A DNA stretch of 34,896 nt from Methanospirillum sp. (GCF_028679455.1 NZ_JAJRBM010000103.1:1-34896); one strand, 5' to 3'; positions 9,215-32,567 are shown, numbered from the stretch's first letter. The notes: generated by a model not told the origin, from the letters alone. Made by a program: numbers and translations.

Positions 9215-9278
9215 TATCGTGAATTTGTAACCCGGAATAACATAGGGTTGCCGGTTTATTGATGCATGAACCGGGGAA

Positions 9279-9284
9279 GTTTAT
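9279..9284 (+). promoter_or_regulatory. TATA-like box for the thioredoxin-like/ccdA operon
   Basis: TTTATA lies about 27-30 bases before the ATG at 9310. Archaeal transcription normally begins about 25 bases downstream of the box, so the transcript would start at or within a few bases of this ATG. That favours a leaderless mRNA and the internal start over the upstream ATG at 9259. Confidence 0.5.
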
Positions 9285-9309
9285 ACTCTATCATTACAGA
9301 TGCTTGTAC

Positions 9310-9897
9310 ATGGTTATAATCCGATATCAGAGAGTTCTGATCACCGGGCTCTGCCTTTTTGCTATTCTGATTTCAGGAATTGCCACATCAGAGCAGCCTA
9401 AAGAAATCAGCCGGGAGGTTACAAATCCTGATGTCACCGCGGTAACACCAAGTGACTCCAGCCTTGGCTGGACAAAAATATCAATGACTGATGCTGTCAC
9501 CGGAGAGCAATTTACAATAGATGAACTCGCGAAACAAGGGAAACCAGTGCTTCTTCACACCTTTGCTGTGTGGTGTCCTGCCTGCTCACTCCAACTTCAT
9601 GAGAGTGAGGGGATGCTCGCTGCCTCCCCTGATGCATTCACTATTGTTGGAATTGATATCGATCCGAATGAGAACCAGGACATGGTTAAGCGTCATGTGA
9701 CAAAAGAGAAATATGCCGGGTATTTTGCAACCTCTCCAAAGGAATTAACCCGAGGTCTGGTGGGAACATTTGGAACAGGATTTGCACTTGAACTTCCTCA
9801 AACCGTTATTGTGTGTAATCGTACGGTGAACCACATGGGATCAGGACTGTTCAGAGCACAGATATTAAAAAGCGCCCTTTCCCAGGTCTGTTCATAA
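9310..9897 (+). CDS. Secreted thioredoxin-like thiol-disulfide oxidoreductase (TlpA/ResA-like)
   Basis: A 195-aa protein with an N-terminal signal or anchor segment (residues about 8-25) followed by a thioredoxin fold with active site WCPAC at residues 88-92. It is expected to act outside the membrane on protein thiols. The frame extends up to ATG 9259, but ATG 9310 gives a normal basic n-region before the hydrophobic stretch and fits the upstream TATA box. ccdA begins two bases after the stop, a classic pairing in which CcdA carries reducing equivalents across the membrane to the thioredoxin-like partner. Confidence 0.88.
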   Translation: MVIIRYQRVLITGLCLFAILISGIATSEQPKEISREVTNPDVTAVTPSDSSLGWTKISMTDAVTGEQFTIDELAKQGKPVLLHTFAVWCPACSLQLHESEGMLAASPDAFTIVGIDIDPNENQDMVKRHVTKEKYAGYFATSPKELTRGLVGTFGTGFALELPQTVIVCNRTVNHMGSGLFRAQILKSALSQVCS

Positions 9898-9899
9898 TC

Positions 9900-10577
9900 A
9901 TGGATTTTACTCCGGAGACCTGGATTTTATCATATCTTGCAGGTTTGTATACCCCGCTCGGAGCGATGTGTGTATTGCCACTCTACCCGGGATATCTTGC
10001 ATTCCTGGCAGGGAGGACTGCACATGAAAAGAGGATCTCAACCCTATTACTAGGAGGAGCAGTAACAGCCGGGGTCATCGGTGCAATGCTTGCATTCGGG
10101 GTAGTATTTGTATCAATCCTGCAGGTCTCAACCAGTCTCGTTATCGGATATCTGGGGCCGGTAGTTTACCTGCTACTGGCAATCATGAGTGTCGGAATGA
10201 TCCTTGGTGTTGACATCGGCAGGATATTTCCAACGATTCAGACACCAGAAGCAAAAACACCCTGGATAACCGCTTGTCTCTTTGGTGCTTTTTTTGGTCT
10301 GGTTGCTCTCCCCTGCAACCCTGCTTCGATCATTATGCTTTTTGCACTATCTACGACGACTGCTGATTTTCTTGCAAACTTTATCAATTTTGTAATCTTT
10401 GGGATCGGAATGGCTACACCACTCCTGGTTCTGTCTGCGTTCTCAATTGATGCGAACCGAAGAGTAGTGTCATTTCTGGCCAGGTATCATGGCATAATAA
10501 ACCGGGGAGCCGGAGTTCTGATGCTGATCGTTGCGTTGTATTACCTGATATTCGTCTTTTTGAGTGAATATCTCTAA
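9900..10577 (+). CDS. ccdA: CcdA/DsbD-family transmembrane thiol transporter
   Basis: A 225-aa polytopic protein with about six membrane segments. The two conserved redox cysteines sit in the expected places, one in the first helix (GAMCVLPLYPGYLAFLAG) and one in the fourth (LPCNPASIIM). The family moves electrons from cytoplasmic thioredoxin to extracytoplasmic thiol proteins. It follows the thioredoxin-like gene by two bases and converges with the phospholipase-D-like gene three bases after its stop. Confidence 0.93.
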   Translation: MDFTPETWILSYLAGLYTPLGAMCVLPLYPGYLAFLAGRTAHEKRISTLLLGGAVTAGVIGAMLAFGVVFVSILQVSTSLVIGYLGPVVYLLLAIMSVGMILGVDIGRIFPTIQTPEAKTPWITACLFGAFFGLVALPCNPASIIMLFALSTTTADFLANFINFVIFGIGMATPLLVLSAFSIDANRRVVSFLARYHGIINRGAGVLMLIVALYYLIFVFLSEYL

Positions 10578-14378: not shown

Positions 14379-14384
14379 AAAAAA
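14379..14384 (-). terminator. U-tract at the 3' end of SRP RNA
   Basis: Six T residues (minus strand) directly follow the closing GUCCC strand of SRP RNA helix 1, before the mdh start codon. It defines the RNA 3' end. Confidence 0.6.
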
Positions 14385-14692
14385 GGGACACGTTCTCGGT
14401 CGACAGACCGTTGTTGCCTTTGTCTCAAGCCTTCTCCTCCGCCCCGCAACCCCATGGGCGCCGAACGTTCACGGTAAGTCTGCTCCCTTCCGGGCCTGGA
14501 CCAATCTCCGCGACAACAGGTCATTCCTTCCTCCGAAGGTCAGATTCCTGGCCATCGACCTCACAGGACAGGGTTTCTTCGTTGAAAGCATGGAGATTTC
14601 AGGCAATACGTGTAAGCCTTCCTCGAACTTCGCCCCCTGCGTACCGGCGATTTCAGGTAACAGGTGACGTCGATCCACCCGGGCTAGTCCCC
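14385..14692 (-). ncRNA. ffs: Signal recognition particle RNA (7S RNA)
   Basis: Read on the minus strand, the region contains the near-universal SRP domain IV core (CCAGGCCCGGAAGGGAGCAG), where SRP54 binds, and a 5' domain beginning CUAGCCCGGGUGG as in archaeal SRP RNAs. The ends pair as helix 1, GGGAC at the 5' end with GUCCC at the 3' end. The length of about 308 bases is normal for archaea. The RNA scaffolds SRP19 and SRP54 for co-translational targeting. Ends are set by the terminal helix and a following T6 run and may be off by a few bases. Confidence 0.93.
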
Positions 14693-14708
14693 ATAATTAT
14701 GCGGAGAG

Positions 14709-22994: not shown

Positions 22995-23510
22995 TCATGA
23001 AAAAATTAAGAGTATTGCGATTACACAGACAAACAGAACAATTCCCACAATAAGAATCATCTGTTTTCTGGTTATCAGAGTAGTCTTGGCAAGTTCTTCC
23101 CGCATCAGCAGTAGATATGATTCATAGCGTGGAAGTGAATCCAAAACCTCTTTCAGATCCTCTTTTGTCACTTCGTGGAAATGGTGTGAGCACTGGTTTC
23201 TGAAATCAACAAGTCTGATCAGATCCTGACGGGTCGCAGGATCAATGATATCATAATCTGAAAGACGTTTGAAGATCACTTTATTTTTGATCTCTTCTTC
23301 GGGGCCGGCATACCCACGAAAATAAACCGTTTCTCTCCCAAGATCAATCAACCGATTTGCCAAAGCAAAAAGAACCATCGAAAGCGCATAGAAATTACGG
23401 CGATCCCGATCATTACGTCCAGGTTGCTGACTGATACTGTGGGCATCCTCACAATATTGATTGATGTCAGATATGATTTTATTCTGTTCCGGAGTTAGTC
23501 CATGACCCAT
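22995..23510 (-). CDS. Membrane-tethered HepT-like protein
   Basis: A 171-aa, largely helical protein. Residues 104-111 read RNQCSHHF, an R-x4-H-x-F motif closely resembling the R-x4-H-x-Y motif of HepT/HEPN RNase toxins, with phenylalanine in place of the tyrosine. A single hydrophobic helix at residues 151-170 ends the protein, so the HEPN-like domain would face the cytoplasm as a tail-anchored protein. No MntA-type nucleotidyltransferase partner is encoded beside it. It converges with mptA two bases apart. The assignment rests on one motif and helical content. Confidence 0.6.
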   Translation of the reverse strand: MGHGLTPEQNKIISDINQYCEDAHSISQQPGRNDRDRRNFYALSMVLFALANRLIDLGRETVYFRGYAGPEEEIKNKVIFKRLSDYDIIDPATRQDLIRLVDFRNQCSHHFHEVTKEDLKEVLDSLPRYESYLLLMREELAKTTLITRKQMILIVGIVLFVCVIAILLIFS

Positions 23511-23795
23511 ATCTCTTTAGTAGTTGGGTATGGATCAGGATAAGCAGATCAGTCTCTGCGATCAAGTACAAAGTTGAGACGAAAATTGACTGGACATGAA
23601 TGAACCTCAATTCCTGGTTTCCAGATTATTCCATATCATATTGTCTATCATTCCTCCTTTGCTTAGTCAACAGTAATCGGATGACATCTTGCATAGTACT
23701 ATCTGATTACTAGGATGAAAAACCCCGTGAACTCCGATACCGAGCTATAATCCAAACAATTTGTTGCAATTGACGGAATTATACCATGATAAATA

Positions 23796-24620
23796 TTATA
23801 GATCGGGATAGATCCCTGAACCATAGTCATACGCCTTTAAAAAGTGAATAATCCCCCCTGTTACAAATGATTTATCAGATACAAAATTATGTGATGAACT
23901 CCGGTTCCATTCATCAGCACCATTCGATCTGGACTCCATAGACGATGCAGAAATCTCAGTCAATACTGAACCAACTGCATAACCCAACCCGGAAGTAGGA
24001 TTTGGAGTGATATCAATGCGATATAAAAGAGCAGCTGGCGTATTGCTACTATCAGAAGCCATCCTGGCATCTGCCTTCGTTGAGATCTGTACACTATTTA
24101 TATTAACCAATGTGCTTCGGGCCGTTACCGTATTACAGAATGCTGGGATAACCTGAGCTGAAGCACTAAATACACAGGATATCGGGTTATCTGATGCTGA
24201 ATAATTACCTACATTACTCAATGAAATTTCCTCATCCGCAAAGAGATGACTCCCATCAATACTTTCGTAGGTGATGAGTTTAGTACTCTCCAGATTATTC
24301 AAACCCCCACGCTGGTCAGATGAATCAAAACCAAATTGTTTGTTCATCATAAGATGACCTCCATTAGTCATGGTTGAATCACGATAAACCAATGAACCAA
24401 CTGCCTCATCCGATTTTACTATTCCAGGACCAAGATATTGATTCGAAAGATCCCAACTCATTATAGTATGATCATCAACCATCCCCACCACATCAATAAC
24501 TGTAGTGATAGAGATCATCTGATTCTCATACGTAGCATTTGGGAGTCACATAGCCTGACAGATGCAGACTGATATTACAAGCAAATAGACAAATAGAATC
24601 AAAATTCGATAGTCCCACAT
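23796..24620 (-). pseudogene. Diverged sheath-like secreted protein, copy 3, interrupted by an in-frame TGA
   Basis: The frame is homologous throughout to the two genes at 25.4 and 26.5 kb. Reading from ATG 24620 gives a signal peptide of 24 residues, then TGA at 24548-24546 as codon 25, then LPNATYENQ and a complete mature domain to the TAA at 23796. Codon 25 is arginine in both intact copies (AGG and CGC), so a CGA to TGA change explains it. Without readthrough only a 24-residue peptide forms; internal ATG 24518 would give a 240-aa product without a signal peptide. The two cysteines (SCVFS and AFCNTV) and the C-terminal block VTGG are kept, so the disruption may be recent. A GGGGTG lies a few bases before the ATG, as in copy 2. 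Confidence 0.8.
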
Positions 24621-24711
24621 AACCCCACCCCACCAGAGTGACGCAATGGGATTTTATCGCGGAGGTTTAATTAGTTGCTCTTAAAAAAATAGGTAAATAT
24701 TAATCTAAAGA

Positions 24712-25269
24712 TTATGACAGTTTAAATAATGGGACCGAGGGCTGCATACTCTTCACATCACTTGAGTTGAACTTCGTTGAAGGCTGCATGCTCTTCACGT
24801 CGCTGGAGTTGAACTTCTCGGAAGGCTGCATGCTCTTCACGTCACTGGAGTTGAACTTCTCGGAAGGCTGCATACTCTTCACGTCACTGGAGTTGAACTT
24901 CTCGGAAGGCTGCATACTCTTCACGTCACTGGAGTTGAACTTCTCGGAAGGCTGCATACTCTTCACGTCACTGGAGTTGAACTTCGTTGAAGGCTGCATA
25001 CTCTTCACGTCACTGGAGTTGAACTTCTCGGAAGGCTGCATACTCTTCACGTCACTGGAGTTGAACTTCTCGGAAGGCTGCATACTCTTCACGTCACTAG
25101 AGTTGAACTTCGTTGAAGGCTGCATACTCTTCACGTCACTGGAGTTGAACTTCTCGGAAGGCTGCATACTCTTCGGGTATAATACATCATCAGCAACGGA
25201 AATGCCAACAATACTTACTATTAAGGCGATTATTACACCCGAAACCATCACCATACTCATACGCTTCAT
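24712..25269 (-). CDS. Secreted protein of tandem 14-residue repeats
   Basis: A 185-aa protein from ATG 25269 with GAGGA eight bases upstream. A signal peptide (residues about 1-27, VIIALIVSIVGISVADD) is followed by ten copies of KSMQPS-E/T-KFNSSDV, an eleventh start KSMQPS, and the ending VPLFKLS. The only residue that varies between units is E or T at position 7 (order E T E E T E E E E T). The mature part is hydrophilic and low in complexity, with many Ser, Lys and Asp, so it may be extended or a linker. It lies between the second and third sheath-like genes on the same strand, suggesting a surface role. No known family recognised. A GTG at 25284 is a possible earlier start. Confidence 0.85.
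   Translation of the reverse strand: MKRMSMVMVSGVIIALIVSIVGISVADDVLYPKSMQPSEKFNSSDVKSMQPSTKFNSSDVKSMQPSEKFNSSDVKSMQPSEKFNSSDVKSMQPSTKFNSSDVKSMQPSEKFNSSDVKSMQPSEKFNSSDVKSMQPSEKFNSSDVKSMQPSEKFNSSDVKSMQPSTKFNSSDVKSMQPSVPLFKLS
24736..25173 (-). repeat. 42-base in-frame tandem repeat array (10 units plus a partial)
   Basis: Ten 42-base units encode KSMQPS(E/T)KFNSSDV, followed by 18 bases of an eleventh. Units fall into two types that differ in a cluster of bases: TCCGAG for the E type and TCAACG for the T type. Other differences are scattered single changes. The unit length is a multiple of three, so gain or loss of units keeps the frame. No spacers are present. Confidence 0.97.
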
Positions 25270-25376
25270 ATCAGGATTCCTCACATAAAGTTGATGGATA
25301 TCCTATTTAATCTTACTATCATGAACAAATAAAAAAACCATCCGATAAAGATTCTTTTCAGAAAACAATCAAAGTG

Positions 25377-25394
25377 CGATGTAAAAGTACATCG
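25377..25394 (-). terminator. Second hairpin downstream of copy 2
   Basis: A perfect 7-bp stem CGATGTA/TACATCG with a 4-base loop, about 45 bases after the copy 2 stop. It may act as a back-up terminator or 3' end stabiliser. Confidence 0.45.
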
Positions 25395-25412
25395 AGGTTA
25401 CCATTACCAATT

Positions 25413-25432
25413 AAAAAAGATCTTAAAAGATC
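25413..25432 (-). terminator. Terminator of sheath-like gene copy 2
   Basis: Directly after the stop, the inverted repeat GATCTT/AAGATC is followed on the minus strand by a T6 run (25418-25413). Confidence 0.6.
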
Positions 25433-25436
25433 AGAG

Positions 25437-26324
25437 TTACACTCTGAATCCTGATTTATACGCGAAACTCTTCTGGAAGTTCTTGATGCCACCAGTTACT
25501 GCAGTACTGTCTTTCCAGATGTTGGTGGCTGCGGTCTTGTTCCAAGTAGCGGTCTTATAATCAGAGGCGGCAGAGCCATCATACCCATAGTTGGTATCAC
25601 CACCATCACGGGCTTCCATGATACTGCCCGCAAACACCGTCTTCACGGTCCCTTCTGCATAACCACTCCCTGAGTTAGTATCAGGAGTAACTGCAATCTG
25701 GTAGTTCAATTCTGCAGGCGTCCCCGCATCAGAAGTTACTGCGCGAATTTGTCCTTTAGTAGAAATCTGAGCGCTATTGATATTGATAAGACTGCTCTTT
25801 GCAGTTACAATATTACAGAAGGCTGGAAGACTATCACCTGCACCAGTCGAGAAAACGCACCTGATATTACCATCACCGCTTGCATAATTCCCAGCTACTG
25901 ATAGAGTATACTCTTCTTCCCCAACCAGATGTGCACCCTCAACACTGGCATAGGTAAGAACTTTCTGGGCTTCAATATTATACAGACCTGTTGACTGATC
26001 CTGTGAGTTGAAATCAAAGTTCTTGTTCATGCTCAATTTCCCACCATTCGTCATGATGGAATCACGGTAGGTGATATCTGCAATCGATTGCGAAGCTCCG
26101 AGAATACCGGTCGGGATCGCTCCAGGTGATCCAATCACCCAGGATAATACGGTATTATCAGATACAAAACCGGTAACATCTATGACTGTACTGATAGAAA
26201 ATACCTGATTTTCAGGGGTCTGATTTGGTAAGCGGTCACCGGCCGCAGAACCCATGAGGGCGATAAAAACCACCAAGACGGCACATATTAATTTTCCATA
26301 TCTCACAATAATTCCCCACACCAT
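25437..26324 (-). CDS. Sheath-like secreted beta-rich protein, copy 2
   Basis: A 295-aa protein with a signal peptide ending near residue 29 (LMGSAAG, then DRLPN), then a mature domain very close to copy 1: FSISTVIDVTGFVSDNT, AIPTGILGA, KNFDFNSQ, EEEYTLSVAGNYA, and two cysteines in RCVFS and AFCNIV, 14 residues apart. The many alternating polar and hydrophobic stretches suggest beta strands. The start is ATG 26324 with a GGGGTG a few bases upstream. I infer export and surface assembly, possibly in the proteinaceous sheath known in Methanospirillum; homology to the characterised sheath protein was not tested. Confidence 0.85.
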   Translation of the reverse strand: MVWGIIVRYGKLICAVLVVFIALMGSAAGDRLPNQTPENQVFSISTVIDVTGFVSDNTVLSWVIGSPGAIPTGILGASQSIADITYRDSIMTNGGKLSMNKNFDFNSQDQSTGLYNIEAQKVLTYASVEGAHLVGEEEYTLSVAGNYASGDGNIRCVFSTGAGDSLPAFCNIVTAKSSLININSAQISTKGQIRAVTSDAGTPAELNYQIAVTPDTNSGSGYAEGTVKTVFAGSIMEARDGGDTNYGYDGSAASDYKTATWNKTAATNIWKDSTAVTGGIKNFQKSFAYKSGFRV

Positions 26325-26478
26325 GCCAGCACCCCGGCATATATGGATACATTATGATCTGGATTATAAGTAGTTTCTTGAACTCAGGAAATGTGCAATT
26401 TGAGGCATAACTTAAGAGTTCAAAACATTCTCTATTTTTAATTTAAGAGAAGAATCACGGAATTAAGACGAGAAATAC

Positions 26479-26513
26479 AAAAAAAGGGAAAACTAAAGAG
26501 TAGTCTTTAGTTT
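26479..26513 (-). terminator. Strong hairpin terminator of sheath-like gene copy 1
   Basis: A perfect 10-bp stem (AAACTAAAGA/TCTTTAGTTT) with a 4-base loop overlaps the stop codon and is followed within a few bases by a T7 run. It is unusually strong for an archaeal gene and suits a stable, abundant mRNA. Confidence 0.8.
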
Positions 26514-27402
26514 AGCTGAGTTTCTGGAAACCAGACTGGTATGCAAATGCCTTCTGGAGAGTCTTGATGCCACCGGTTACAGTGGTAGAATCTTTCCAGG
26601 TGTTGGTTGCTGCGGTCTTGTTCCAGGTTGCAGTCTTGTAGTCTCCGTCTCCACGATCGTCAGTATCTTCTCCGTTACGGTAGTAGTTGGTCTTGCCACC
26701 GTCACGGGCTTCCATGATGCTGCCTGCGAAGACAGTGCTAACAGTTCCTTCTGCAAAGCCGCTACCGGAGTTTGCATCAGGGGTGACTGCGATCTGGTAG
26801 TTCAGAGCTGCTGGAACATCAGCGGTCTCTGCAACTGCGCGGATCTGACCCTTGGTGGAGATCTGAGCGCTGTTTACATTGACAAGGCTGCTCTTTGCAG
26901 AGACAATGTTACAGAATGCTGGCAGGATGCCTCCGTGGTTCTGTGAAAAGACACAGCGGATGTTGTCTGCAGCGGTTGCGTAGTTACCTGCAACGGAGAG
27001 AGTGTACTCTTCCTCGCCAACCATGTGTGCACCTTCGGTGCTGGCGTAGGTCAGGACCTTCTGCTGCTCAATGTTGTACAGACCCTTTAACTGGTTCTGG
27101 GAGTTAAAGTCGAAATTCTTATTCTCGGCGAGCTTTCCACCGTTGGTCAGGATTGCATCCTTAAAGGTTACATCAGCGATTGTCTGACCTGCTCCAAGAA
27201 TACCGGTTGGAATTGCACCTGGACCTGCAATGACCCAGGACATGGTGGTCTTATCATCTACTGCACCAGTGACATCGATTACGGTGTCAATGGAGAAAAG
27301 CTGGTTTTCAGGGGTTGCATTGGGCAGCCTGTCTGCTGCTGCGAACCCGGTGACTGCCACAAGGGCGACCAGTGCAACAATTGCTGCAAATACGAACTTC
27401 AT
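26512..27402 (-). CDS. Sheath-like secreted beta-rich protein, copy 1 (likely main, highly expressed)
   Basis: A 296-aa protein with a clean signal peptide (MKFVFAAIVALVALVAVTG, cut after FAAA) and a mature domain starting DRLPNATPENQ. It shares with copy 2 the blocks IDTVIDVTG, AIPTGILGAGQTIAD, LTNGGKL, EEEYTLSVAGNYA, the cysteines in RCVFS and AFCNIV, and VTGGIK near the end. Expression signals are the strongest in the window: a TATA box, a leader hairpin, AGGAGG six bases before ATG, and a 10-bp hairpin terminator. Codons are visibly more GC-rich than in copies 2 and 3. A major surface or sheath component is the best guess; the function is inferred, not shown. Confidence 0.87.
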   Translation of the reverse strand: MKFVFAAIVALVALVAVTGFAAADRLPNATPENQLFSIDTVIDVTGAVDDKTTMSWVIAGPGAIPTGILGAGQTIADVTFKDAILTNGGKLAENKNFDFNSQNQLKGLYNIEQQKVLTYASTEGAHMVGEEEYTLSVAGNYATAADNIRCVFSQNHGGILPAFCNIVSAKSSLVNVNSAQISTKGQIRAVAETADVPAALNYQIAVTPDANSGSGFAEGTVSTVFAGSIMEARDGGKTNYYRNGEDTDDRGDGDYKTATWNKTAATNTWKDSTTVTGGIKTLQKAFAYQSGFQKLS

Positions 27403-27408
27403 TTATTT

Positions 27409-27414
27409 CCTCCT
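27409..27414 (-). promoter_or_regulatory. Perfect Shine-Dalgarno of copy 1
   Basis: AGGAGG (minus strand), six bases before the ATG at 27402, the best match to the anti-SD in this window. Confidence 0.8.
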
Positions 27415-27421
27415 ACATTTC

Positions 27422-27440
27422 ATGCTGATACTCTCAGCAT
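27422..27440 (-). promoter_or_regulatory. Hairpin in the copy 1 mRNA leader
   Basis: ATGCTGA and TCAGCAT form a perfect 7-bp stem with a 5-base loop, seven bases upstream of the Shine-Dalgarno and near the predicted 5' end (about 27444). A stabilising 5' stem-loop is the likely role. Confidence 0.55.
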
Positions 27441-27467
27441 CAACATAGACACGTTGTCAGTAACGAG

Positions 27468-27477
27468 TTATATATTT
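27468..27477 (-). promoter_or_regulatory. TATA box of copy 1
   Basis: AATATATAA preceded by a purine-rich GAGAA that fits a BRE. It would place transcription start near 27444, giving a leader of about 42 bases. Confidence 0.7.
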
Positions 27478-27523
27478 TCTCAGTTTTAGAAATCGCAAAA
27501 ATAAACTTAAACTGGAATTGAAC

Positions 27524-27529
27524 AAAAAA
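27524..27529 (-). terminator. U-tract after trmI
   Basis: A T6 run on the minus strand, about 20 bases after the trmI stop, separating that operon from the sheath-like genes. Confidence 0.5.
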
Positions 27530-27548
27530 CGGGAGTTTGGAATTTTGA

Positions 27549-28274
27549 TTACTTCCGCATAATCGTGATATACCCGCTATGACAGACACGGGTCGAGGGG
27601 CGTGTCCCTCGTTCACTCCGATCCATATCACGCATAATGCACTCATATGAAGCAGACTCAAAAAACAGGCCATGAGCATTATCATGTGCCAAGATCATCT
27701 GTTCAAAAAAAGGAGTGTAACATACCAGATAACCACCCGGATTGAGTATCGTATGAGCATGGATCACATGTTCTGCTGTCAGACTGAGATCCAGATGAAC
27801 GATATCATAAATCCTGGTTTCCTGAAGAATCTCACCGGTAATAATCTCCAGATTCTCTATCCCGGCCTCCCTGACAGTTACCCTTGCCTGTTGCGCAAAT
27901 TCCTCTTTGCGTTCATATGAAGTAACCTTCCCTGCAACTCCTGCAAAAAATATTGCTGCAATACCACTGCCAGTCCCGGCATCTAGTACCCGGTCTTTTT
28001 TATTCATCCCGGTTAGCCCAATAACGAGGCCAATATCGCGGGGCAACATAGGAGCTCCGGTCCGTTTCGCAAATTCAAAAAAATCGGTAGCCCGGGGAAG
28101 GCGGATGGTAAGTTCCTTTCCGGAATGAGTTTGGATGTTGTCACCGATCTCTTTCCCAATGAGTTGACGAAGATCTACCAGACCCACATCGGTTCCAATC
28201 TTCTCATCACCAGCTTTCACCAGCCATGATTTTCCATACCCGGAGATGAGAACCAGATCAGAGTATTCAATCAT
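27549..28274 (-). CDS. trmI: tRNA (adenine-N1)-methyltransferase TrmI
   Basis: A 241-aa archaeal TrmI, which makes m1A at positions 57/58 in the tRNA T-loop with SAM. It shows an N-terminal barrel domain, LPRDIGLVIGLTGM, then SAM motif I VLDAGTGSGIAA, YERKEEFAQQA and NPGGYLVCYTPFFEQ. The frame begins three codons earlier at a TTG, but ATG 28274 is the normal start; it overlaps the end of the NAC gene by eight bases. It is the last gene of the DHH-PUA-NAC-trmI operon. Confidence 0.92.
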   Translation of the reverse strand: MIEYSDLVLISGYGKSWLVKAGDEKIGTDVGLVDLRQLIGKEIGDNIQTHSGKELTIRLPRATDFFEFAKRTGAPMLPRDIGLVIGLTGMNKKDRVLDAGTGSGIAAIFFAGVAGKVTSYERKEEFAQQARVTVREAGIENLEIITGEILQETRIYDIVHLDLSLTAEHVIHAHTILNPGGYLVCYTPFFEQMILAHDNAHGLFFESASYECIMRDMDRSERGTRPSTRVCHSGYITIMRK

Positions 28275-32509: not shown

Positions 32510-32549
32510 ACGGGATTTGTCCCGTTAGGTATGTGGCCTGATTTCAGGC
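32510..32549 (+). promoter_or_regulatory. Two tandem hairpins in the L15e leader
   Basis: First hairpin: ACGGGA/TCCCGT with a 4-base loop (32510-32525). Second: GCCTG/CAGGC with a 4-base loop (32536-32549). They fill most of the predicted 60-base leader and end eight bases before the Shine-Dalgarno (TGGAG). A regulatory role is plausible; no protein-binding consensus was recognised. Confidence 0.45.
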
Positions 32550-32567
32550 TGAACCTCTGGAGATATT

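What the first reader, a model, noticed from the sequence alone, without database searches (positions are those of the whole stretch)
23796..27480. Tandem family of secreted, probably beta-rich paralogs: candidate cell-sheath locus
Three homologous minus-strand genes share a signal peptide, a DRLPN-type mature N-terminus, a VIDVTG block, EEEYTLSVAGNY, and two cysteines 14-15 residues apart. They are interleaved with a secreted repeat protein. Methanospirillum and Methanothrix are known to live in a proteinaceous, amyloid-like tubular sheath, and Methanospirillum sheath hoops are known to be separated with thiol reductants. A conserved cysteine pair in an abundant secreted beta-rich family fits that. 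Each paralog could supply a different part (hoop, end plug, minor subunit). The link to the sheath is inference.
Basis: partly seen in the sequence, partly recalled or inferred. Interest (0 to 1): 0.75.

Follow-up and report, generated by a model that had tools for sequence, protein, structure and literature searches.

The report
Archaeal sheath-protein genes with conserved leader
The three look-alike genes belong to the known family of amyloid-like proteins that build the tubular sheath around Methanospirillum cells, and the main copy carries a previously undescribed, almost unchanging RNA hairpin at the start of its message that marks the strongly expressed sheath genes in at least nine related genera.

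Summary
Genes A (26512-27402) and B (25437-26324) are intact secreted paralogs. C (23796-24620) is a diverged paralog broken by an in-frame TGA, so its listed ORF has no signal peptide. The sheath reading is right and already published as a kind. A is 64% identical to the 377-aa M. hungatei JF-1 sheath protein Mhun_2271 (proven by mass spectrometry and cryo-ET), shares its Cys pair and sits at the same chromosomal place. A lacks JF-1's ~100-aa cap. A has strong codon adaptation; B and C do not, so A is the likely main subunit and division of labour among the three is unsupported. The repeat protein (24712-25269) is a Methanospirillum-only secreted 14-aa repeat; function open.
New: a 23-nt element, GTTGATGCTGAGAGTATCAGCAT, lies about 42 nt before A's start, 22-26 nt below the TATA box. 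It is identical before sheath genes of different genera whose flanking DNA has diverged to near chance. Strong hits occur in nine genera, always before sheath genes. Covariation favours a 7-bp RNA stem-loop. It marks the highly codon-adapted copies. Likely role (inferred): a 5'-terminal stem-loop boosting stability or translation of sheath mRNA.

The parts
26512..27402 (-). Gene A: major sheath-protein (SH/MspA-family) gene, 296 aa, signal peptide about residues 1-23, mature DRLPN..., no cap domain
   Evidence: 64% identity to JF-1 SH, 89% to the syntenic copy in G007; same neighbours as in JF-1; codon adaptation 0.686 vs window mean 0.37 +- 0.028
26911..26955 (-). Conserved cysteine pair of A (Cys150 26955-26953, Cys164 26913-26911), equivalent to Cys257/Cys271 of Mhun_2271
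   Evidence: the published disulfide model names Cys257 (PMC10593813) and Cys271 is named in PMC6242892
27422..27444 (-). Conserved 23-nt leader element GTTG-ATGCTGA-GAGTA-TCAGCAT: 7-bp stem-loop at or near the 5' end of the A transcript
   Evidence: identical in 11 SH genes of 4 genera; model R1 hits; all strong hits checked precede SH genes; covariation; no Rfam match
27409..27414 (-). Shine-Dalgarno AGGAGG of A, within the conserved GAAATGTAGGAGG tail of the leader
   Evidence: sequence
27467..27474 (-). TATA-box-like sequence TATATAAC, centre 26 nt before the leader element
25437..26324 (-). Gene B: second, weakly codon-adapted SH paralog, 295 aa (alternative GTG start at 26306), no conserved leader
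   Evidence: 73% to A; counterparts G007_B and G003_B sit at the same place; codon adaptation 0.367
24712..25269 (-). Gene R: secreted 14-aa repeat protein (KSMQPSEKFNSSDV), N-S-S sequon in each repeat; a Methanospirillum-only family
   Evidence: tandem array 24740-25174; family; model poor, pLDDT 45
23796..24620 (-). Gene C: disrupted SH paralog, related to the second SH gene of the JF-1 locus
   Evidence: in-frame TGA; tree places it with JF1_SH2, support 100/99
24546..24548 (-). In-frame TGA in C, at the position of the Arg of DRLPN

Best explanation
This is the principal sheath locus of a Methanospirillum species. Gene A encodes the main sheath subunit: exported by a signal peptide, folded into a two-sheet amyloid-like core, polymerised edge to edge into rings, with the conserved Cys pair crosslinking neighbouring rings. 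It does so without the ~100-aa cap domain found in JF-1. B is a weakly expressed duplicate, C a decaying older paralog, and R a genus-specific accessory secreted protein of unknown role. High output of A is supported by a dedicated 5' leader: a near-invariant 23-nt element that most likely forms a 7-bp stem-loop at the very 5' end of the mRNA, just before a strong ribosome-binding site, and raises mRNA stability and/or translation. Shown: homology, synteny, Cys conservation, beta-rich model, leader conservation, its specificity to SH genes and its association with codon adaptation. Inferred: sheath assembly in this organism, transcript start, hairpin in vivo, and its effect.
For: SH identity: genome G002 has the published JF-1 length, 3,544,738 bp. 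Its L052:5901-7034 is 377 aa, 40.5 kDa, Cys257/Cys271, as published for Mhun_2271. A is 64% identical to it. Both lie next to the same methyltransferase, NAC, PUA and DHH genes. A folds as long beta strands, mean pLDDT 76, strands above 90. Main copy: A has the highest codon adaptation of the SH genes found in its genome, 0.686 vs window background 0.37 +- 0.028; B 0.367, C 0.297. Positive control: Mhun_2271, the most transcribed JF-1 SH gene (PMC11576556), is also the JF-1 SH gene with high adaptation and the leader. Leader: 23/23 identical across 4 genera while the 40 nt upstream are 25-60% identical between distant members. Every strong model hit checked with a readable ORF precedes an SH gene. 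In this family 14 checked genomes outside the genus have SH plus leader, 15 have neither, 3 have SH only, none leader only. Stem cells paired 93.6%, 8 cells changed on both sides vs 2.4 in shuffles, 0/500. Leader-bearing SH genes n=21 mean adaptation 0.618, others n=54 mean 0.395, p=3e-10.
Against: No transcript start, proteome or microscopy exists for this genome, which is an incomplete 462-contig assembly. The loop is as conserved as the stem, so part of the constraint is on sequence, not pairing. In one paralog group (own C429, G003_23, G007_104, G004_24) the stem is weakened although those genes look highly expressed. Alignments of close relatives alone gave no significant covariation. The shuffle control ignores relatedness, as does the p-value. 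Genomes outside the home family in the phylum sample show no strong hit, so the leader is not general to archaeal sheaths.
Confidence: 0.8

Rival explanations
1. The conserved 23-nt element is a DNA operator or core-promoter element around the transcription start, read by a transcription factor as an inverted repeat, not an RNA hairpin.
For: It lies 22-26 nt below the TATA box, where initiator elements or operators sit; loop and flanks are conserved too; the 5' half drifts in one expressed paralog group while GTATCAGCAT stays.
Against: One-sided changes at stem positions often give G-U pairs (17 cells), tolerated by RNA and not by a symmetric DNA site. Some leaders keep a hairpin with a longer or different stem: G013 GCTGATCCTCT/AGAGGATCAGC, G031 11-bp stem. 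It is followed by a conserved short spacer to the ribosome-binding site.
Confidence: 0.3
2. The leader is identical between genera only because of recent gene transfer or gene conversion among sheath genes.
For: SH genes are known to duplicate and move between lineages (PMC11576556); A is closer to own_C429 than to its positional counterparts, which suggests exchange within a genome.
Against: DNA immediately upstream is 25-60% identical between genera and the compared coding stretch is mostly 20-50%, so there was no recent transfer of a longer segment; a 23-nt tract alone is unlikely to be transferred repeatedly.
Confidence: 0.07
3. One reading: A, B and C are structural parts with different roles (hoop, plug, minor subunit).
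For: B is retained at the same place in G003 and G007; the C lineage is kept as an intact gene next to aglB in five other genomes; the published survey proposes specialised roles for SH variants (PMC11576556).
Against: B and C have background codon adaptation and no leader; C is broken here and absent at this locus in G003 and G007.
Confidence: 0.2
4. The proteins are S-layer proteins, adhesins or secreted enzymes unrelated to the sheath.
For: No Pfam, NCBIfam or PDB family matches.
Against: 64% identity and shared locus with an experimentally established sheath protein; the M. hungatei S-layer protein is a different Ig-domain protein, Mhun_2263 (PMC11641113).
Confidence: 0.03

Closest known systems
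Methanospirillum hungatei JF-1 sheath protein SH / MspA (Mhun_2271, WP_011449234.1)
   Same: Signal peptide, mature DRLP N-terminus, core sequence (64% identity), the Cys pair 14 apart, genomic neighbours, 5' leader including the 23-nt element, strong codon adaptation
   Different: A lacks the ~100-aa cap domain and has a longer insertion near the C-terminus; JF-1 has aglB between the two SH genes, the window has B and the repeat protein instead
Archaeal SH protein family surveyed in PMC11576556
   Same: Multi-copy, clustered, variable caps, Methanomicrobiales members
   Different: That survey reported no conserved context for the genes; no shared leader is described in the passages read. Here the cis element is conserved although gene context is not
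Methanothrix thermoacetophila MspA (ABK14853)
   Same: Secreted, associated with purified sheath
   Different: Not compared here; published as lacking structural similarity to the Methanospirillum SH protein and probably not the main sheath protein (PMC11576556)
5'-terminal mRNA-stabilising stem-loops such as the E. coli ompA leader (from general knowledge)
   Same: Hairpin at the 5' end upstream of a Shine-Dalgarno on an abundant envelope-protein mRNA
   Different: No sequence relation; archaeal, nearly invariant in sequence, specific to one protein family

Membership tests
Methanospirillum SH/MspA sheath-protein family | Sequence homology to Mhun_2271 | tested here: met
   A 64%, B and C also aligned over the core; genome G002 matches JF-1 by length, and the gene by length, mass and Cys positions
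Methanospirillum SH/MspA sheath-protein family | N-terminal signal peptide | tested here: met
   A and B by sequence inspection and a predicted N-terminal helix in A; no signal-peptide predictor was available; not met for C as it stands
Methanospirillum SH/MspA sheath-protein family | Core of two beta sheets of antiparallel strands | tested here: inconclusive
   Model of A is nearly all long beta strands with high local confidence; no direct superposition on a JF-1 model was possible
Methanospirillum SH/MspA sheath-protein family | Cysteines able to link neighbouring rings | tested here: met
   Cys150/164 align with Cys257/271; bond formation not testable
Methanospirillum SH/MspA sheath-protein family | Cap domain (present in JF-1; variable in the wider family, so not strictly defining) | tested here: not met
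   About 100 residues absent in A, B and C; capless members are described in the wider family (PMC11576556)
Methanospirillum SH/MspA sheath-protein family | Product present in purified sheath, amyloid-like assembly | not testable with these tools
   Needs proteomics or imaging
Known structured RNA family (Rfam 15) | Match of the leader element to a described family | tested here: not met
   No match in 23500-27700 up to E=1, none at gathering thresholds there
5'-terminal stem-loop leader | Conserved base pairing with compensatory change | tested here: met
   93.6% of cells paired, 8 compensatory cells vs 2.4 shuffled; the shifted alternative helix fails; controls do not correct for relatedness
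5'-terminal stem-loop leader | Located at the mapped 5' end of the transcript | tested here: inconclusive
   TATA-like box 22-26 nt upstream in 11 leaders; no transcript data available here

The most novel reading that the evidence does not exclude
The leader is a dedicated regulatory RNA element, read by an RNA-binding protein or small RNA specific to sheath-forming Methanomicrobiales, that controls the sheath-gene regulon (choosing which of up to ~30 SH copies are made, and coupling sheath synthesis to cell growth), kept almost letter-perfect across at least nine genera.
Probability: 0.25. Interest if true: 0.78.

Novelty: new variant of a known kind. Interest (0 to 1): 0.55.

Why it matters
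How sheathed archaea make one amyloid subunit in bulk from dozens of near-copies is unknown, and the published survey found no conserved gene context to work from. A cis element found only on sheath genes, present on the proven JF-1 sheath gene and on the copies with strong codon adaptation, gives a sequence marker for the main subunit in any genome of the family and a concrete handle on sheath gene expression. If A is confirmed in sheath, the cap domain is not essential for building this kind of sheath.

Tried and rejected
Pfam, NCBIfam and PDB sequence searches of A, B and C gave nothing (PDB for A only); Pfam hits to the repeat protein are matches of repeats to unrelated short families. Foldseek of the A model against PDB and BFVD gave no match at E<=0.001, and the listed pore-forming proteins have TM about 0.1. 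A viral-contig scan found no relative of A at the confirmation threshold, although the literature reports SH-like viral proteins. A second, shifted helix (GUUGAUGC/GUAUCAGC) looked better among close relatives (97.5% paired) but failed in the wide set (79.9%, no covariation), so it was dropped. Covariation on close relatives alone was not significant. Exact-stem pattern hits with other loops (G000:C145, G003:C8, G014, G019) were treated as chance. Weak model hits outside the family (E 0.001-0.05 among about 390 genomes) are what chance would give. Structure prediction of the repeat protein was too poor to use (pLDDT 45). dN/dS for C was uninformative because dS is saturated.

Full report
WHAT IS THERE. 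On the minus strand of 23796-27480 lie, in order of transcription, A (296 aa, 27402-26512), B (295 aa, 26324-25437), a secreted repeat protein R (start ATG 25269, stop at 24712) and C (23796-24620). C does not: its open frame begins at 24518 without a signal peptide. Read from 24620, a signal-like N-terminus runs straight into TGA exactly where A has the Arg of DRLPN, and the homologous reading resumes with LPNATYENQ. C is therefore a disrupted copy in this assembly.

WHOSE GENOME. The window is contig C387 of a 3.1-Mb, 462-contig genome that is 88.65% complete. Same-genus genomes include one of 3,544,738 bp, the published size of Methanospirillum hungatei JF-1, and M. stamsii Pt1 (same 285,182-bp contig), so the genus is Methanospirillum.

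THE FAMILY IS THE KNOWN SHEATH FAMILY. In the JF-1 genome, L052:5901-7034 encodes 377 aa, 40.5 kDa, with Cys257 and Cys271. The papers describe the JF-1 sheath protein Mhun_2271 as 377 aa, 40.6 kDa, C271 (PMC6242892) and, with a second cysteine, Cys257 (PMC10593813). A is 64% identical to it and its Cys150/Cys164 align with that pair. The two genes also share chromosomal neighbours: a methyltransferase, NAC, a PUA-domain protein and a DHH phosphoesterase (the last three assigned from sequence by eye) lie upstream in the window and in other Methanospirillum genomes. In the JF-1 group the order is SH, then an oligosaccharyltransferase aglB (Pfam STT3 plus AglB domains), then a second SH gene. 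In the group of the window (with G003 and G007) it is A, B, R and no aglB at this place. C groups with the second SH gene of the JF-1 locus (support 100/99), so the window keeps a broken remnant of the ancestral arrangement. This genome holds about a dozen or more family members, in line with 3-31 copies reported for Methanomicrobiales (PMC11576556).

STRUCTURE. A gives a beta-rich AlphaFold model: nine strands, mean pLDDT 76, pTM 0.71, most strand blocks at 85-95. Nothing similar is in PDB or BFVD. The alignment shows that the ~100-residue cap of JF-1 SH is absent from A, B and C, while A has a longer insertion before the last strands. Capless SH proteins are described elsewhere in the family (PMC11576556).

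WHICH COPY MATTERS. Codon adaptation to mcrA and thermosome codons separates the copies. A scores 0.686; ordinary genes of the window 0.37 +- 0.028; B 0.367; C 0.297. The method has a positive control: in JF-1 the experimentally dominant Mhun_2271 scores 0.611 and the other SH genes tested 0.33-0.44. So A is the probable main subunit. B and C look like minor or decaying copies, which does not support a three-part division of labour.

THE NEW OBSERVATION: A CONSERVED LEADER. The 5' flank of A contains GTTG-ATGCTGA-GAGTA-TCAGCAT followed by GAAATGTAGGAGG and the start codon. The first 23 nt are identical in front of A, Mhun_2271 and nine other SH genes from four genera, while the preceding 40 nt are only 25-60% identical between the distant members and the compared coding stretch has mostly fallen to 20-50% (ungapped comparison). 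The element starts 41-44 nt before the start codon and a TATA-like box is centred 22-26 nt before it in all 11, so the transcript most likely begins at or next to the element. That is an inference: no transcript data were available.

SPECIFICITY. An exact-stem genome search of 31 genomes found the GAGTA-loop form at 13 sites, all at SH genes, and none for the reversed control pattern. A covariance model searched in 41 relatives and 394 genomes of the phylum gave strong hits (E<1e-4) only in the home family, in nine genera. Every strong hit checked that has a readable downstream frame precedes a gene that matches the SH profile; the few without a match are reading frames cut off by contig or locus ends. 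In total 77 SH genes with 49 distinct 23-mers were collected (the most distant of these are chance-level resemblances). Among the family genomes checked outside the genus, 14 have SH and leader, 15 have neither (including all members of genus g5), 3 have SH without a strong leader hit, none has a leader without SH.

HAIRPIN OR OPERATOR. RNA folding gives a 7-bp stem with a 5-nt loop (z -3.8 for A, -3.2 for JF-1). Mean z of leaders with the perfect stem is -2.95, against about -0.2 for SH upstream regions without it. On 38 distinct 23-mers the stem has 93.6% of cells paired and 8 cells changed on both sides, against 2.4 in shuffles (0/500), and more than any slid register. Examples are A-U to G-C, U-A to C-G and G-C to A-U. 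The sequences were picked by closeness to the consensus, which works against finding compensatory changes. A shifted alternative helix is not supported. Against a pure RNA reading: the loop is equally conserved and one paralog group weakens the 5' half of the stem. The shuffles also ignore relatedness. An RNA hairpin is favoured; a DNA site is not excluded.

ASSOCIATION WITH EXPRESSION. In Methanospirillum, 21 SH genes with the leader have mean codon adaptation 0.618, 54 without it 0.395 (Mann-Whitney p=3e-10, phylogeny not corrected). In JF-1 the only SH copy found with the leader is Mhun_2271. The simplest mechanism is a 5'-terminal stem-loop that protects the mRNA and presents a strong ribosome-binding site; regulation by a specific binder is the more novel option.

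THE REPEAT PROTEIN. R is a signal peptide, a short DD-x-x-YP segment and about ten 14-aa units, with N-S-S (a possible N-glycosylation site) in nearly every unit. Relatives occur in seven other Methanospirillum genomes, with 2 to about 20 units, and in no genome of another genus apart from one borderline hit at E=0.009. It lies beside the SH genes in the window, G003 and G007 only; in JF-1 it is a tandem pair elsewhere. It is not needed for sheaths in general, since other SH-bearing genera lack it. Its role is open; the phenol-soluble sheath polypeptides of M. hungatei mentioned in PMC6242892 are one candidate identity, untested.

VERDICT. The sheath locus is a member of a known kind, with a capless main subunit. 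The leader element is, as far as Rfam and the paper searches made here show, undescribed.

Noticed in passing
24546-24548 (-): In-frame TGA at the signal-peptide junction of paralog C; the rest of the frame is intact, so the disruption is recent or an assembly error.
   Followed up: partly
24712-25269 (-): Methanospirillum-only secreted 14-aa repeat protein family with an N-x-S sequon in nearly every repeat; unit number varies from 2 to about 20; tandem pair in JF-1 (L063) and M. stamsii (L064).
   Followed up: partly
L052:3219-5741, L053:4477-6906 and equivalents in L054, L055, L056: An aglB-type oligosaccharyltransferase gene sits between the main SH gene and the second SH gene in five Methanospirillum genomes, although the JF-1 main SH itself has no N-glycosylation sequon; the window lineage lacks aglB here and its SH proteins do have sequons.
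   Followed up: partly
9259-10577 (+): TlpA/DsbE-like thioredoxin-fold protein followed by a CcdA/DsbD-type membrane protein, about 13 kb from the sheath genes; possible extracytoplasmic disulfide chemistry.
   Followed up: partly
L161, L036 (G013) and L211 (G031), upstream of SH genes: Some SH genes carry different or longer hairpins at the same leader position (11-bp GCTGATCCTCT/AGAGGATCAGC; GGTGCAC/GTGCATC; TTTCATACTGA/TCAGTATGAAA).
   Followed up: partly
L009:4010-4885 (G000:C429) vs window 26512-27402: A is closer in the tree to another copy in its own genome than to its positional counterparts in sister genomes, suggesting gene conversion among SH copies.
   Followed up: no
32511-32560 (+): Rfam eL15-Euryarchaeota ribosomal protein leader before the L15e gene.
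   Followed up: no
14382-14694 (-): Archaeal SRP RNA gene.
   Followed up: no
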